Assembly: GCF_000381265.1 (NCBI RefSeq)
Contig: NZ_KB906253.1
Location: forward strand, 248,001-312,000
Reading direction: 5' to 3'
Source: Curvibacter lanceolatus ATCC 14669
GTDB lineage: Bacteria > Pseudomonadota > Gammaproteobacteria > Burkholderiales > Burkholderiaceae_C
DNA: 64,000 nt
Below are positions 3,361-16,900 of the stretch, piece after piece. The notes beneath the pieces are model-generated. The model was given only the letters and a program-made list of their open reading frames with translations, did no database searches and was not told the DNA's origin. The position numbers and the translations under genes are program-made. Numbering within the stretch: position 1 is the first letter of the stretch; every line of letters starts with the position of its first letter.

Positions 3361-3714
3361 GGGGCAATTCCGAAGATCTGAGGCGTTTGAGGAACGATGT
3401 GGGGCTTTGCCTGCGGGTGCACGGTCCCCCCGACGCTCCAAGCAAGACGCGCGCCTGCTGGCTGAAGTTAAGGCGGACGTCAATTCAAGGCATCAGGTTC
3501 AACCCTGGGTGCGGTGCCGAAATCGGGCTGGCGGGACGCCTGTGCCGCATGCGGTCAACTTGCGGGTCGGATCGGAGCAAGTGCTCTGACACCGGGCTCG
3601 CGCAGACGCCGCGATGTCGGAACGAGCCAAGCGTGGCGCAGCATCCAGCCAAGCTGCAACAGGCCCTGCCACCTAAGCTCAAGCCTCGATTTCACCCACC
3701 TCCACGAGGCACAC
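3361..3714. promoter_or_regulatory. Divergent promoter region between araC-type gene and nitrilase operon
   Basis: These 354 bases separate divergent start codons and hold no gene. TCGGAGCAAG at 3572-3581 repeats, in the same orientation to the downstream gene, the 10-mer found upstream of the outer-membrane channel. ATGTCGGA at 3614-3621 also recurs there (1989-1996). Both sites lie 95-145 bases upstream of the binding-protein start. ACGAGG about 8 bases before ATG 3715 is the ribosome binding site. No clear -35/-10 pair could be fixed by eye. Confidence 0.4.
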
Positions 3715-5001
3715 ATGCAAGACGATCTGCTCACCCCCGCCGGCAGCGAGACCCGGCGAAAGTTCCTGGTCAAAGGCTCGGCGCTTGCTGCAGCGAGCAT
3801 CGCGGCACCGCAGGCATTTGCTGCCGACGATGTCATCAAGATTGGCTACCTCACCCATCGCACCGGGCCGTTTGCACCGTTTGCCGAGGCCGATCCCTTC
3901 ATTCTGGAGAACGCCTCGAAGGCGCTTGCCAATGGGCTGAACATCGGTGGCAAAACCTACCGCGTCGAGTTCATCGCCAAGGACGACCAGAGCAACCCGG
4001 ACCGTCAGTCCAACCTCGCTGCAGAGCTCATCAACAAGGACGGTGTGGACCTGATGCTGGGCCAGGCCACCATCGGCCCCGGCATCGCCCAGCAGTGCGA
4101 GATCAATGGGGTGCCTTGCATCACCACCATGACACCCTGGCAGGCCTGGATGTTTCCCATGAAGGGCGACCCGGCCAAGGGCTTCAAGAGCGTCTTCCAC
4201 TTCTTCTGGGGCATCGACGACATTGCCAACGTCTACCTGGACATCTGGAAGGACCTGAAGCTGCCCGAGGTCATCGGTGCGGCTTTCGAGAACACGCTGC
4301 CTGGCAATGCCATGGGCGATCTGAAGATGGGCATGCCGGCGATGTTTGCCAAGGCCGGCTACAAGATCGTGGACATCGGCAAGTTCGCGCCGGGTAGCAG
4401 CGACTTCTCGGCGCAGATACAGGCCTTCAAGAACGAGGGCGTGGAGATCGTCACCGGCCTGTTTGCCCCGCCGGAGTGGTCGGGCTTCGTCAAGCAGAGC
4501 GCGCAGATGGGCTTTCATCCCAAGGTCGCCACGATCGCCAAGGCCTTGCTCTTCCCCGGTGGCGTGAAGGCGCTGGGCAAGAGTGCACACGGCATGTCCA
4601 CCGAGATCTGGTGGTCTCCGGCCTACCCGTTCCGCAGCAGCCTGACCGGTCAGACCGCCCGCCAACTCGCCGACGCCTACACCACGGCCACCCGCAAGGA
4701 GTGGACCCAGCCCATCGGCGTGATGCATGCCCTGATTGAAGCCGGTGTGGCGGCGCTCAAGGCCAGCGGCGATCCCAAGAACCCGCAGAAGGTGGCCGAT
4801 GCCATCCGCAGCCTGCGTCAGGACACGGTGATCGGCCGACTGGACTTTGCCGGCAGCGGCATCAAGAACGTGTCGAAGATGCGGGTTGTGGGCGGGCAAT
4901 GGGTGATCGACGACAAGGGGCGCCTCGACATCGTCGTCACGCACAACGGCACAGCGCCTGAGATCCCGGTTCAGCGCAAGTTCGAACTGCTCCCGGCCTG
5001 A
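3715..5001 (+). CDS. ABC-transporter substrate-binding protein, amide/branched-chain type, Tat-exported
   Basis: A 428-residue periplasmic binding protein of the Peripla_BP_6 (LivJ/AmiC/UrtA) type. The N-terminus carries a twin-arginine signal: ETRRKFLVKG at residues 12-21, then a hydrophobic AlaSer segment ending AFAA near residue 36, so it is probably exported folded. The mature start VIKIGYLTHRTGPFA is the family's first strand. LGQATIGPGIAQQC and the tryptophan-rich TPWQAWMFP are ligand-pocket regions. The start is set by the Tat signal and an upstream ACGAGG. It is the first gene of the operon and its stop overlaps the next start (TGATG). Because the operon's enzymes are nitrilase and aldoxime dehydratase rather than amidase or urease, the ligand may be a nitrile, aldoxime, amide or derived acid. 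This is inference. Confidence 0.88.
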   Translation: MQDDLLTPAGSETRRKFLVKGSALAAASIAAPQAFAADDVIKIGYLTHRTGPFAPFAEADPFILENASKALANGLNIGGKTYRVEFIAKDDQSNPDRQSNLAAELINKDGVDLMLGQATIGPGIAQQCEINGVPCITTMTPWQAWMFPMKGDPAKGFKSVFHFFWGIDDIANVYLDIWKDLKLPEVIGAAFENTLPGNAMGDLKMGMPAMFAKAGYKIVDIGKFAPGSSDFSAQIQAFKNEGVEIVTGLFAPPEWSGFVKQSAQMGFHPKVATIAKALLFPGGVKALGKSAHGMSTEIWWSPAYPFRSSLTGQTARQLADAYTTATRKEWTQPIGVMHALIEAGVAALKASGDPKNPQKVADAIRSLRQDTVIGRLDFAGSGIKNVSKMRVVGGQWVIDDKGRLDIVVTHNGTAPEIPVQRKFELLPA

Positions 5002-5765
5002 TGGAGAGGGCTGACGTGTTGCTGGAACTGAAAAAAGTCACCAAGTCCTACGGGGCCACCCGGGTCATCAAGGGCCTGGACCTGCGGGTCGCTCAGGGCG
5101 AGTTCGTGGGGGTGATCGGCCCGAATGGGGCGGGCAAGACCACGGCCTTCGGCTTGATCGCCGGGCACTTGCGCTGCGACAGCGGCGAGGTCTGGCTCGA
5201 CGGTGAGAACGTCACGACCCAGGGGGCGGACCAGCGCTGCCGGGCAGGCATCGGCAGGACGTTCCAGATTCCGCAGCCCTTCAGTGGTCTGACCGTCTAC
5301 GAGAACACCCTGTTGGCTGCGGTCTATGGGGCCGGGCTGCACAGCGCTCAGGCGGCCGCAGCGGCGCACGACGCCTTGCGCCGCTGCGGGCTGGCGGTGG
5401 TCGGCAACCAGATGGCCGGGGGGCTGACGCTGCTGCAGCGCAAGCGCCTGGAAGTGGCCCGAGCCCTGGCCACCGGGCCCAAGCTGCTCCTGCTCGATGA
5501 GGTGGGTGGCGGGCTCACGGACGCCGAAGTCCATCAATTGCTCGAATTGGTGGCCGAGATCCATTCGCAGGGCGTGACCGTGCTCTGGATCGAACACCTG
5601 GTCCATGCGCTGGTGAAGGTGGCACGGCGCCTGGTCGTGCTGTCGGAAGGCGCCTTGCTGGCCGACGGCCTGCCCGGCGATGTCATTGCCAGTCGCCTGG
5701 TGCGCGAGACCTACCTGGGCTCGGAACTGGAGATGCAAGCGGAGGTCGAGCATGCTGCAGATTGA
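5001..5765 (+). CDS. ABC-transporter ATP-binding protein, LivG-like
   Basis: A 254-residue ATPase that energises the importer. Walker A is GPNGAGKT (residues 40-47) and Walker B KLLLLDE (161-167). The ABC signature is degenerate (GGLTLLQRKRLE instead of LSGGQ), as in many LivG-type subunits of this transporter class. The Q-loop lies in IGRTFQIPQPF and the switch histidine in WIEHLVHAL. The ATG overlaps the TGA of the binding-protein gene by one base, showing translational coupling. It pairs with the second ATPase, which starts inside its last 14 bases. Confidence 0.9.
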   Translation: MERADVLLELKKVTKSYGATRVIKGLDLRVAQGEFVGVIGPNGAGKTTAFGLIAGHLRCDSGEVWLDGENVTTQGADQRCRAGIGRTFQIPQPFSGLTVYENTLLAAVYGAGLHSAQAAAAAHDALRRCGLAVVGNQMAGGLTLLQRKRLEVARALATGPKLLLLDEVGGGLTDAEVHQLLELVAEIHSQGVTVLWIEHLVHALVKVARRLVVLSEGALLADGLPGDVIASRLVRETYLGSELEMQAEVEHAAD

Positions 5766-15948: not shown

Positions 15949-16001
15949 GCACTAAGTCGGGCAACAATATGAGCCTACTAAGTGCCATTGGAAAATCCAA
16001 T
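15949..16001. promoter_or_regulatory. Candidate LysR operator in the mdlC/lysR divergent promoter
   Basis: ACTAAGT occurs at 15951-15957 and 15977-15983. GCACT (15949-15953) and AGTGC (15981-15985) form an inverted pair. ATTGGA (15987-15992) and TCCAAT (15996-16001) form a perfect palindrome around AAA, ending two bases before the regulator's ATG, a position suited to autoregulation. Confidence 0.5.
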
Positions 16002-16003
16002 AA

Positions 16004-16900
16004 ATGGAACAGCTCGATCTGAACCTGCTGAGGGTCTTCGATGTGATCTATCGAACCCGCAACGTGAGCCGTGCCGCCGAACAGCTGGGCCTGTCCCAGC
16101 CTTCCACCAGCCAGGCCCTGACACGGCTGAGGCTGGCGCTCGGCGACCCCCTGTTCGAGCGGACGCGCGGCGGCGTCCGACCCACGCCCCGGGCCGACGA
16201 CCTGGCGCGCTCGGTGCAGACCGGCCTGGCCCATCTGGAGGCCGGCCTGGCCTCCGACAACACCTTCGACCCGCGCAGCTCCAGCACCGAGTTGCGCATT
16301 CACCTCACCGACATCGGCGAGGCGCGGTTTCTGCCGGAACTGATGTCCGAGTTGAGGCGGCTGGCCCCAGGTATCCAGGTGCAGGCGAGGGCGTTGCCCC
16401 AGTCTGAGATCGGGCTGGCGCTGGACAACGGGGACATCCATCTCGCCATCGGGTTTCTGCCCGAGCTGACCGGCTCGGCCAGCGAACAGTTGCTGTCGGA
16501 CCGCTATGTGGTGCTGCTGCGCAAAGGACATCCGATCACGGAGTCGCTCAAGCGGCCCGTCCTGAGCCTGCGAAAGATGCACTCCCTGGAGTTGGTGGCC
16601 GTGCGCTCGCATGCGCAAACGCTCCAGATGCTGCGCGCCGCCAGTCTGGACCGGCAGATCAAGCTCACGACGTCGACCTTTCTGGCGCTGCCGGGCATCG
16701 TGCGCCACTCTGACCTGGCGGTCCTCATGCCGTTGGCGATTGCGCGCGAATTCGTGCAGGACGGGCCTTTCTTGCTGCTCGACACCGAGCTACCGTCCAA
16801 TGCCTTCAATGTCGCTGTGCACTGGAGCCGACGCCACGAGCACTCGCCCCTGGTTCGATGGGCGCGTGGGCTCGTGGTGCGCCTATTTCGCAAGGCCTGA
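16004..16900 (+). CDS. LysR-type regulator, NahR/DntR-like
   Basis: A 298-residue LysR-type transcription factor. The HTH spans residues about 8-60 (LNLLRVFDVIYRTRNVSRAA, then LGLSQPSTSQALTRLR). The linker and first sensor strand FDPRSSSTELRIHLTDIGE and the RFLPELMSELRRLAPG segment match the NahR/NodD/DntR subgroup, which respond to small aromatic acids. It is divergent from the benzoylformate decarboxylase operon and very probably controls it. An ATTGGA-AAA-TCCAAT palindrome abuts its start codon, suggesting autoregulation. The inducer could be mandelate, benzoylformate or benzoate, by inference. Confidence 0.88.
   Translation: MEQLDLNLLRVFDVIYRTRNVSRAAEQLGLSQPSTSQALTRLRLALGDPLFERTRGGVRPTPRADDLARSVQTGLAHLEAGLASDNTFDPRSSSTELRIHLTDIGEARFLPELMSELRRLAPGIQVQARALPQSEIGLALDNGDIHLAIGFLPELTGSASEQLLSDRYVVLLRKGHPITESLKRPVLSLRKMHSLELVAVRSHAQTLQMLRAASLDRQIKLTTSTFLALPGIVRHSDLAVLMPLAIAREFVQDGPFLLLDTELPSNAFNVAVHWSRRHEHSPLVRWARGLVVRLFRKA

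What the first reader, a model, noticed from the sequence alone, without database searches (positions are those of the whole stretch)
3361..16900. Complete aldoxime-nitrile-acid pathway joined to a benzoylformate (mandelate) branch
Seen: nitrilase with Glu-Lys-Cys triad, aldoxime dehydratase with Ser219 and heme/distal His segments, a dedicated ABC importer, and, facing them, benzoylformate decarboxylase with all four catalytic residues plus an aromatic aldehyde dehydrogenase. Known: arylacetonitrilases hydrolyse mandelonitrile and phenylacetonitrile; benzoylformate decarboxylase acts on the oxidised mandelate. Inference: one locus can use aromatic aldoximes or cyanohydrins through mandelate to benzoate. 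I do not know of a described cluster with this combination and order.
Basis: partly seen in the sequence, partly recalled or inferred. Interest (0 to 1): 0.75.

Follow-up and report, generated by a model that had tools for sequence, protein, structure and literature searches.

The report
Cyanohydrin and aldoxime breakdown gene cluster
A bacterium related to Curvibacter gracilis carries, side by side, genes that look fit to take up and eat cyanide-bearing plant defence chemicals (such as the almond compound mandelonitrile) and their precursors; simpler gene sets of this sort are known, so this is a richer version of a known kind.

Summary
In detail: importer, nitrilase, aldoxime dehydratase, benzoylformate decarboxylase (BFD) and aromatic-type aldehyde dehydrogenase (ALDH) are intact, with their catalytic residues. 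Of 15 homologues in 399 Comamonadaceae genomes, 14 lie within 4.6 kb of BFD; the 15th is cut by contig ends. Proposed route: (R)-mandelonitrile, (R)-mandelate, benzoylformate, benzaldehyde, benzoate, then box genes found elsewhere in the genome. Support: the nitrilase clade co-occurs with BFD, and nitrilases neighbour mandelate-type genes in differently built loci (another Comamonadaceae genus, a Burkholderia plasmid, Novosphingobium plasmids). Corrections: the aldoxime arm should yield arylacetate, not mandelate; the aldoxime dehydratase looks like a separate recruit; the operons have separate regulators, and the LysR-site motif is absent from the first. Precedents: a 2022 review reports mandelate genes near a nitrilase in Pseudomonas fluorescens EBC191, and oxd-nit-AraC clusters in Bacillus and Bradyrhizobium. 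Their union, the KPR-type dehydrogenase and the ABC importer appear new in the few literature searches made. All activities are inferred.

The parts
833..1723 (-). Outer-membrane channel-like protein (Phenol_MetA_deg, PF13557); possible pore for aromatic substrates
   Evidence: Pfam 197 bits; a 62% homologue lies inside the same operon between permease and nitrilase in genome G280
2311..3360 (-). AraC-family regulator (nearest NCBIfam model FeaR, below its cut-off), divergent from the importer operon
   Evidence: AraC_binding_2 + HTH_18, FeaR 184 of 199 bits; homologue with nitrilase-OXD in 11 of 13 OXD genomes; ATG at 3360
3715..5001 (+). Periplasmic binding protein of a branched-chain-amino-acid-type ABC importer; Tat-like leader RRKFL
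   Evidence: Peripla_BP_6; leader read from the sequence
5001..5765 (+). ABC importer ATPase 1
   Evidence: ABC_tran; importer beside nitrilase in 6 of 30 nitrilase genomes
5752..6444 (+). ABC importer ATPase 2
   Evidence: ABC_tran
6441..7322 (+). ABC importer permease 1
   Evidence: BPD_transp_2
7340..8326 (+). ABC importer permease 2
   Evidence: BPD_transp_2
8384..9397 (+). Nitrilase, arylacetonitrilase type by relationship; Glu48/Lys132/Cys166, Trp167 next to the catalytic Cys, Trp190
   Evidence: trees
9414..9628 (+). Remnant of a methyl-accepting chemotaxis protein gene that is open in C. gracilis (between nitrilase and OXD)
   Evidence: three short matches to L002 9549-9974; MCPsignal and 4HB_MCP_1 on L002:8082-9974
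9629..10681 (+). Haem aldoxime dehydratase (OXD)
   Evidence: PF13816 286 bits; residues
10718..11692 (-). Bug/TctC-type periplasmic binding protein
   Evidence: PF03401; PDB matches include terephthalate-binding protein
11733..12668 (-). Ketopantoate-reductase-family enzyme, proposed NAD-dependent D-(R)-mandelate dehydrogenase
12798..14249 (-). Aldehyde dehydrogenase, benzaldehyde type (Cys285, Glu251)
14292..15896 (-). Benzoylformate decarboxylase (ThDP)
15975..16001 (.). Probable LysR operator: CTACTAAGTG followed by the dyad ATTGGAAAATCCAAT
   Evidence: CTAAG core in 14 of 15 LysR/BFD intergenic regions, dyad in 5 (read by eye)
16004..16900 (+). LysR-family regulator, divergent from the BFD operon
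   Evidence: same arrangement in relatives

Best explanation
Two catabolic operons that face each other form one route for plant-type cyanohydrins and related nitriles. Operon A (AraC beside it) imports the substrate by an ABC importer; the nitrilase hydrolyses arylacetonitriles: mandelonitrile to mandelate (mainly (R), a weak inference from the Trp beside the catalytic Cys), phenylacetonitrile to phenylacetate. The aldoxime dehydratase widens the input to arylacetaldoximes, which leave as arylacetate. Operon B (LysR beside it) takes D-(R)-mandelate: the KPR-family enzyme oxidises it with NAD+ to benzoylformate, BFD decarboxylates that to benzaldehyde, the ALDH gives benzoate, and box genes elsewhere in the genome degrade it. 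The Bug protein may serve mandelate uptake. Shown here: genes, catalytic residues, conserved gene linkage, recurrence. Inferred: every substrate, stereochemistry, direction of flow, co-regulation.
For: KPR-BFD linkage: 15 of 399 Comamonadaceae genomes have the KPR gene at E<=1e-60; in 14 of 15 it lies within 4.6 kb of BFD, the 15th is cut by contig ends. An FMN enzyme follows KPR in 5 of these 15 operons; one such enzyme has (S)-mandelate dehydrogenases as its best PDB matches after two lactate oxidase sequences. The KPR profile gives 3wfi 233 bits and E. coli 1ks9 131. Nitrilases >=74% identical (5 genomes, one clade, 100/100): BFD in 5 of 5, KPR in 4 of 5; the other 25 nitrilase genomes: BFD in 5, KPR in 0 (Fisher p 1.8e-4 for KPR). 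Neighbourhoods: G097 BFD-ALDH-Bug-MFS-FMN next to AraC-importer-nitrilase; G308 nitrilase followed by FMN dehydrogenase; B. anthina plasmid mdlC-ALDH-MFS-4-hydroxybenzoate monooxygenase-FMN-regulator-nitrilase; three Novosphingobium plasmids with nitrilase, KPR and ALDH, two of them also with a ThDP enzyme. Sinks in the genome: boxABC plus benzoate-CoA ligase; paaA.
Against: No activity is shown. NCBIfam files the KPR gene as 2-dehydropantoate 2-reductase, 265 bits against a cut-off of 141; its best PDB match by profile is 8wl3 (265 bits), whose function I cannot place. The cluster FMN enzyme's best NCBIfam model is L-lactate dehydrogenase, below cut-off (348 of 376 bits). Modules A and B are side by side in this form only in the two Curvibacter genomes; in G280 they lie on different contigs. 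G289 has the clade nitrilase with BFD but no KPR, and no ALDH hit at its BFD. Two Novosphingobium plasmids have KPR, ALDH and MFS without nitrilase in the stretch. The LysR motif is missing at operon A. OXD genomes are weakly enriched in KPR or BFD once Curvibacter counts once (p 0.06 each). Trp beside Cys is the usual state (26 of 30 genomes' best hit). OXD is nearest the aliphatic OxdA model, below its cut-off (345 of 600 bits). The clade limit was chosen after seeing the data; the Fisher tests ignore phylogeny; the genome searches scored only the best few candidates per genome.
Confidence: 0.62

Rival explanations
1. Chance neighbours: an aldoxime-nitrile operon that makes arylacetic acids, and an unrelated mandelate/benzoylformate operon that happens to lie next to it in two close Curvibacter species.
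For: Adjacency of these two modules in this form is seen only in the two Curvibacter genomes (dS 0.05-0.15 apart from the KPR gene); separate regulators; LysR site only at operon B; weak OXD-BFD/KPR association.
Against: The same nitrilase clade carries BFD even when unlinked and nitrilase sits beside mandelate-type genes in other, differently arranged loci.
Confidence: 0.22
2. A variant of the best explanation (not exclusive of it): the route handles hydroxy- or methoxy-substituted cyanohydrins/mandelates, such as 4-hydroxymandelate, more than mandelonitrile itself.
For: ALDH is nearest vanillin and salicylaldehyde dehydrogenases; the B. anthina cluster, from a Sorghum sample, carries a gene annotated 4-hydroxybenzoate 3-monooxygenase.
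Against: No hydroxybenzoate hydroxylase among the window cluster genes; a box gene set for unsubstituted benzoate exists in the genome.
Confidence: 0.25
3. Operon A is for auxin/phenylacetate formation or nitrogen scavenging from aldoximes and nitriles; the KPR gene is a pantothenate enzyme and BFD a general 2-oxo-acid decarboxylase.
For: NCBIfam name of the KPR gene; oxd-nitrilase pairs recur and are discussed for indole-3-acetic acid in PMC8955678 (section 8).
Against: The genome has another PanE-family gene over the cut-off (G000:C3); the KPR gene lies with BFD in 14 of 15 homologues, the 15th being cut by contig ends, and its profile scores 3wfi above E. coli PanE; BFD keeps all four P. 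putida catalytic residues.
Confidence: 0.1

Closest known systems
Nitrilase near mandelate-pathway genes, Pseudomonas fluorescens EBC191 (Kiziak et al. 2005, as reported in PMC8955678; the 2005 paper itself not seen)
   Same: Arylacetonitrilase near genes for mandelate catabolism, proposed for use of plant mandelonitrile; nearest PDB match of the window nitrilase is NitA 6zby (that it is the EBC191 enzyme is recalled)
   Different: EBC191: no oxd found; Ala165 beside the catalytic Cys164 (PMC6930498, passages), here Trp. Here also KPR-type dehydrogenase, ABC importer and OXD
Aldoxime-nitrile pathway clusters oxd-nit-AraC (NitR) of Bacillus sp. OxB-1 and Bradyrhizobium sp. LTSPM299 (PMC8955678, passages and figure legends)
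   Same: AraC regulator, nitrilase, aldoxime dehydratase
   Different: Importer between regulator and nitrilase; chemoreceptor (remnant) between nitrilase and OXD; facing a BFD operon
Mandelate pathway mdlABC(D) of Pseudomonas putida (recalled)
   Same: BFD (MdlC) and a benzaldehyde-type dehydrogenase
   Different: No racemase and no FMN (S)-mandelate dehydrogenase in the window cluster; a KPR-family gene instead
D-mandelate dehydrogenase / ketopantoate reductase family (Wada et al. 2008, cited in PMC12350541, passages; E. faecium enzyme)
   Same: Family sequence features, invariant Lys187, Asp31 after the second strand (NAD type, recalled rule); profile prefers 3wfi to E. coli PanE (that 3wfi is the E. 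faecium mandelate enzyme is recalled)
   Different: Here in an operon with BFD and ALDH, which suggests oxidation in catabolism; Gram-negative host

Membership tests
Arylacetonitrilase | Glu-Lys-Glu-Cys catalytic set | tested here: met
   Glu48, Lys132, Glu139, Cys166
Arylacetonitrilase | Preference for mandelonitrile/phenylacetonitrile | not testable with these tools
   only nearest-relative evidence: 6zby NitA, 396 bits
Aldoxime dehydratase | PF13816 family, catalytic Ser219, haem His and distal His | tested here: met
   residue roles recalled
Aldoxime-nitrile pathway cluster | oxd and nit adjacent on one strand with an AraC regulator | tested here: met
   231-base gap; AraC divergent upstream of the operon; same trio in 11 of 13 OXD genomes
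Benzoylformate decarboxylase | Ser26, Glu47, His70, His281 of P. putida BFD | tested here: met
   (roles recalled); above the NCBIfam cut-off
P. putida-type mdl operon | FMN (S)-mandelate dehydrogenase in the operon | tested here: not met
   no FMN_dh hit in window 1-30000; three full-length FMN_dh genes elsewhere in the genome, 34-41% identical to one cluster enzyme
P. putida-type mdl operon | Mandelate racemase in the operon | tested here: not met
   genes from 10718 to 16900 are Bug, KPR, ALDH, BFD, LysR; not searched genome-wide
D-mandelate dehydrogenase (KPR family) | Rossmann GxGxxG, NAD-type acidic residue, catalytic Lys | tested here: met
   GAGAMG from residue 8, Asp31 and Lys187 invariant in 15 sequences; residue roles recalled
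D-mandelate dehydrogenase (KPR family) | Oxidises (R)-mandelate with NAD+ | not testable with these tools
   inferred from operon context only
D-mandelate dehydrogenase (KPR family) | Closer to D-mandelate dehydrogenases than to pantothenate KPR | tested here: inconclusive
   profile: 8wl3 265 bits (function not placed), 3wfi 233, E. coli 1ks9 131; no tree with characterised enzymes was made

The most novel reading that the evidence does not exclude
The dehydrogenase type in such loci follows the handedness of the cyanohydrin. Loci with the KPR-type enzyme and a Cys-Trp nitrilase serve (R)-mandelonitrile (prunasin/amygdalin type, recalled); loci with only the FMN-type enzyme and a Cys-Ala nitrilase serve the (S) or less selective side (for example dhurrin, recalled as (S), fitting the plasmid from a Sorghum sample). 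The window is then a complete (R)-cyanohydrin pathway, with the aldoxime dehydratase adding the plant's own precursors. Basis: Cys-Trp in 8 of 8 KPR-bearing strains or records whose nitrilase was read (G000, G194, G280, G308, P. caribensis, three Novosphingobium), Cys-Ala in 2 of 2 loci where nitrilase, BFD and FMN enzyme cluster without KPR (G097, B. anthina). Caveats: few cases; Cys-Trp is the common state (26 of 30); G308 has a Cys-Trp nitrilase next to an FMN gene; G289, G011 and G227 have BFD, no KPR and Cys-Trp, with FMN genes not searched genome-wide.
Probability: 0.25. Interest if true: 0.68.

Novelty: new variant of a known kind. Interest (0 to 1): 0.5.

Why it matters
If true, it gives a full, possibly stereo-matched bacterial route for plant cyanohydrins and their aldoxime precursors, names a catabolic function for a group of KPR-family genes that family models file under pantothenate synthesis, and supplies a matched enzyme set (nitrilase, (R)-mandelate dehydrogenase, BFD) of use in biocatalysis. 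It also predicts a simple phenotype to test: growth on (R)-mandelate that depends on the KPR gene.

Tried and rejected
Common regulation: the BFD-operon LysR motif was sought in the whole window and found only at operon B; no shared operator for AraC was clear. A sigma-70 promoter scan of 3200-17000 found none (chance mean 1.0), and terminator-like sites no more than chance. Wider survey of the KPR gene in the class: only the own genome among 366, so it tells little of its spread. Benzoate dioxygenase benA: 8 related hits, none over the cut-off, so box is the likely route. EBC191 cluster: a paper search with EBC191, nitrilase and mandelate racemase gave none; I know that cluster only from PMC8955678. 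Literature on the combination: 'aldoxime dehydratase' with 'benzoylformate decarboxylase', no paper; 'benzoylformate decarboxylase', 'nitrilase' and 'operon', 2 papers, neither on such a cluster by title and abstract start; other searches. PDB codes in papers: no use. No structure was predicted. Passages of PMC11568032, PMC3599355 and PMC3182895 were also seen and added nothing used here.

Limits and dropped rows: the >=74% nitrilase clade was set after seeing the identities (gap from 74 to 63%). G394 and G045 nitrilases lie at contig ends, so an importer could be unseen; they count as 'without'. OXD counts include one copy with an internal TGA (G320) and one split copy (G018); neither was mended. 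Four more genomes had only sub-cut-off PF13816 hits and were not counted. In the OXD tree the join of G280 with Curvibacter was flagged as a possible long-branch artefact; the B. anthina nitrilase is a long branch of unsure place. Plasmid overlaps were read from listed rows only: 20 of 31 BFD, 20 of 27 nitrilase, 25 of 31 OXD, 15 of 15 KPR records. For BFD neighbours, 20 stretches from 19 of the 53 BFD genomes were fetched, two more genomes later (G289, G097), besides the window and C. gracilis.

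
Full report
WHERE. The window lies in a 6.8-Mb genome at G000:C1:248001-312000.

WHAT IS THERE. Operon A on the plus strand: binding protein 3715-5001 with a Tat-like leader, two ATPases, two permeases, nitrilase 8384-9397, aldoxime dehydratase (OXD) 9629-10681, with a divergent AraC gene 2311-3360. Operon B on the minus strand, facing it with 36 bases between the stop codons: BFD 14292-15896, aldehyde dehydrogenase (ALDH) 12798-14249, a KPR-family gene 11733-12668, a Bug/TctC receptor 10718-11692, with a divergent LysR gene 16004-16900. 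Against C. gracilis the 13 genes compared have dN/dS below 0.27.

THE MISSING STEP. The KPR-family gene fits. In 399 Comamonadaceae genomes 15 have a homologue at E<=1e-60; 14 of the 15 have it within 4.6 kb of BFD on the same contig, and in the 15th (G052) BFD ends one contig and the end of an ALDH plus KPR begins another. BFD itself is in 53 of 399 at E<=1e-100. The operons read LysR, BFD, ALDH (missing in G219), sometimes an amidase, KPR, a Bug, DctP or MFS transporter, and in 5 of the 15 an FMN enzyme. One such FMN enzyme has, after two lactate oxidase sequences, (S)-mandelate dehydrogenases as best PDB matches, though its best NCBIfam model is L-lactate dehydrogenase below cut-off. A profile of the 15 KPR proteins scores 8wl3 265 bits (I cannot place its function), 3wfi 233 and E. 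coli PanE 131; I recall 3wfi as the E. faecium D-mandelate dehydrogenase. The family that joins D-mandelate dehydrogenases and ketopantoate reductases is cited in PMC12350541 (passages read). All 15 sequences keep Lys187 and Asp31. Against this: NCBIfam names it 2-dehydropantoate 2-reductase above cut-off; but the genome has another PanE-family gene above cut-off. The three full-length FMN_dh genes of the genome are 34-41% identical to one cluster FMN enzyme, which is 55-61% identical to six others; but the FMN genes beside the nitrilase in G308 and B. anthina are themselves only 44-45%, so a role for a genomic FMN gene, and growth on (S)-mandelate, cannot be excluded. The cluster itself predicts growth on (R)-mandelate.

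IS THE NITRILASE TIED TO MANDELATE? In the 399 genomes 30 have a nitrilase at E<=1e-80. Those at least 74% identical (G000, G194, G280, G289, G308) form one clade, 100/100. All 5 have BFD and 4 of 5 the KPR gene; of the other 25, 0 has the KPR gene and 5 have BFD. G289 lacks KPR and shows no ALDH hit at its BFD. Fisher p for KPR is 1.8e-4 within nitrilase genomes, and 1.4e-4 for the clade with one Curvibacter dropped against the rest of the 399; the grouping was made after the fact and phylogeny is ignored. With plasmid sequences added, the nitrilases of Paraburkholderia caribensis MWAP64 and Burkholderia anthina SO82 join this clade, 98/97, the latter on a long branch of unsure place, and both strains carry BFD. 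Importer beside nitrilase: 6 of 30, of which 5 have BFD, against 5 of the other 24 (p 0.009; 0.022 with Curvibacter counted once).

DIFFERENTLY BUILT NEIGHBOURHOODS. G097: BFD-ALDH-Bug-MFS-FMN, then AraC and importer-nitrilase. G308: importer-nitrilase-FMN, KPR-BFD operon elsewhere. B. anthina SO82 plasmid, sample from Sorghum: mdlC-ALDH-hypothetical-MFS-4-hydroxybenzoate 3-monooxygenase-FMN-regulator-nitrilase-MFS-indoleacetamide hydrolase-ABC importer, as annotated. Novosphingobium plasmids: N. humi KACC 19094 and N. sp. KACC 22771 have nitrilase, MFS, a ThDP enzyme (24-25% to BFD; TPP domains confirmed for the first), KPR and ALDH within about 16 kb; PP1Y has ALDH, AraC, nitrilase and KPR, without a ThDP hit. 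Two other Novosphingobium plasmids have KPR, ALDH and MFS, a ThDP gene too, and no nitrilase in the stretch. Of 15 plasmid records with KPR, 3 have a nitrilase within 10 kb among the rows listed. Among listed rows only the B. anthina record appears in both the BFD and the nitrilase list (20 of 31 and 20 of 27 rows seen).

THE ALDOXIME ARM. OXD over the cut-off is in 13 of 399 genomes (one copy with an internal TGA, one split). In 11 of 13 it sits beside a nitrilase with an AraC gene. On 8 plasmids seen in both listings the nitrilase and OXD matches are within 100 bases. So nit-oxd is a recurrent pair. But in the present clade OXD looks added: G308 and G289 have none, and the OXD of G280 and Curvibacter are about 1.4 changes per site apart while their nitrilases are about 0.1 apart (the join of the two OXD lines is flagged as possible long-branch attraction). 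In C. gracilis a chemoreceptor gene stands between nitrilase and OXD, in G280 nothing does. By established chemistry the aldoxime product leaves as arylacetate; paaA is in the genome. OXD genomes are only weakly enriched in KPR or BFD when Curvibacter counts once (p 0.06 each).

DOWNSTREAM. boxA, boxB, boxC, a benzoate-catabolism regulator, 3,4-dehydroadipyl-CoA semialdehyde dehydrogenase and a benzoate-CoA ligase family gene lie together on contig C20.

REGULATION. The LysR/BFD gap holds CTACTAAGTG and the dyad ATTGGAAAATCCAAT; by eye the CTAAG core is in 14 of 15 gaps compared (window included), the dyad in 5. CTACTAAGTG occurs once in the window with up to one mismatch, so not at operon A. 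A shared regulator is thus not supported by the sequence; a shared inducer is not excluded, since AraC would have its own site.

STEREOCHEMISTRY. PMC6930498 (passages read) states that a large residue beside the catalytic Cys goes with (R)-mandelate formation, as the Trp of Alcaligenes faecalis; the window has Trp167. But Trp is found in 26 of 30 genomes' best hits, so the sign is weak. It is consistent with a D-(R)-specific KPR enzyme and with prunasin/amygdalin being (R)-mandelonitrile glycosides (recalled).

KNOWN OR NEW. PMC8955678 (section 8 and the figure and table section read, passages elsewhere) reports both halves: mandelate-pathway genes near the EBC191 nitrilase without oxd, and oxd-nit-AraC clusters in Bacillus and Bradyrhizobium. 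No paper in the library searched holds both 'aldoxime dehydratase' and 'benzoylformate decarboxylase'; that library lacks most subscription journals. I file this as a new variant of a known kind: the union of both halves, with a KPR-type dehydrogenase and a dedicated importer. Interest 0.5.

Noticed in passing
window 9414-9628; L002 8082-9974: A methyl-accepting chemotaxis gene between nitrilase and OXD is open in C. gracilis (start codon not fixed) and reduced to three short pieces in the window; a chemoreceptor in a nitrile operon hints at taxis to the substrate.
   Followed up: partly
window 11733-12668: The KPR gene is a mosaic: against C. gracilis its first ~540 nt are 64-79% identical per 90-nt block, then 90% and 97-100%, with dS 0.49 against 0.05-0.15 for its neighbours. 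C. gracilis also has a second Bug gene next to it; perhaps recombination between tandem KPR-Bug copies.
   Followed up: partly
window 17710-22253: MbnP-family protein, di-haem CCP_MauG protein and a TonB-receptor plug protein in a row: an MbnP/MbnH-like pair next to a receptor, with a DUF2946 gene in front.
   Followed up: no
window 24015-25691: DNA photolyase/cryptochrome family gene.
   Followed up: no
L106 (NZ_CP126319.1 147000-173000): Burkholderia anthina plasmid (typed conjugative) from a Sorghum rhizosphere sample with a nitrilase-mandelate-4-hydroxybenzoate set; would fit breakdown of the dhurrin aglycone.
   Followed up: partly
plasmids NZ_CP021881.1, NZ_CP020902.1, NC_014839.1, NC_014305.1 and four more: Nitrilase-aldoxime dehydratase pairs ride on plasmids of Escherichia coli, Klebsiella, Pantoea, Erwinia, Acinetobacter and Streptomyces.
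   Followed up: no
L101 (G289:C1:4832000-4838000): Two further nitrilases in tandem (46% and 45% to the window's) about 8-10 kb from the clade nitrilase of that genome.
   Followed up: no
L014 (G320) and L015/L020 (G018): Aldoxime dehydratase copies that look broken: one internal TGA, and one split into two frames.
   Followed up: no
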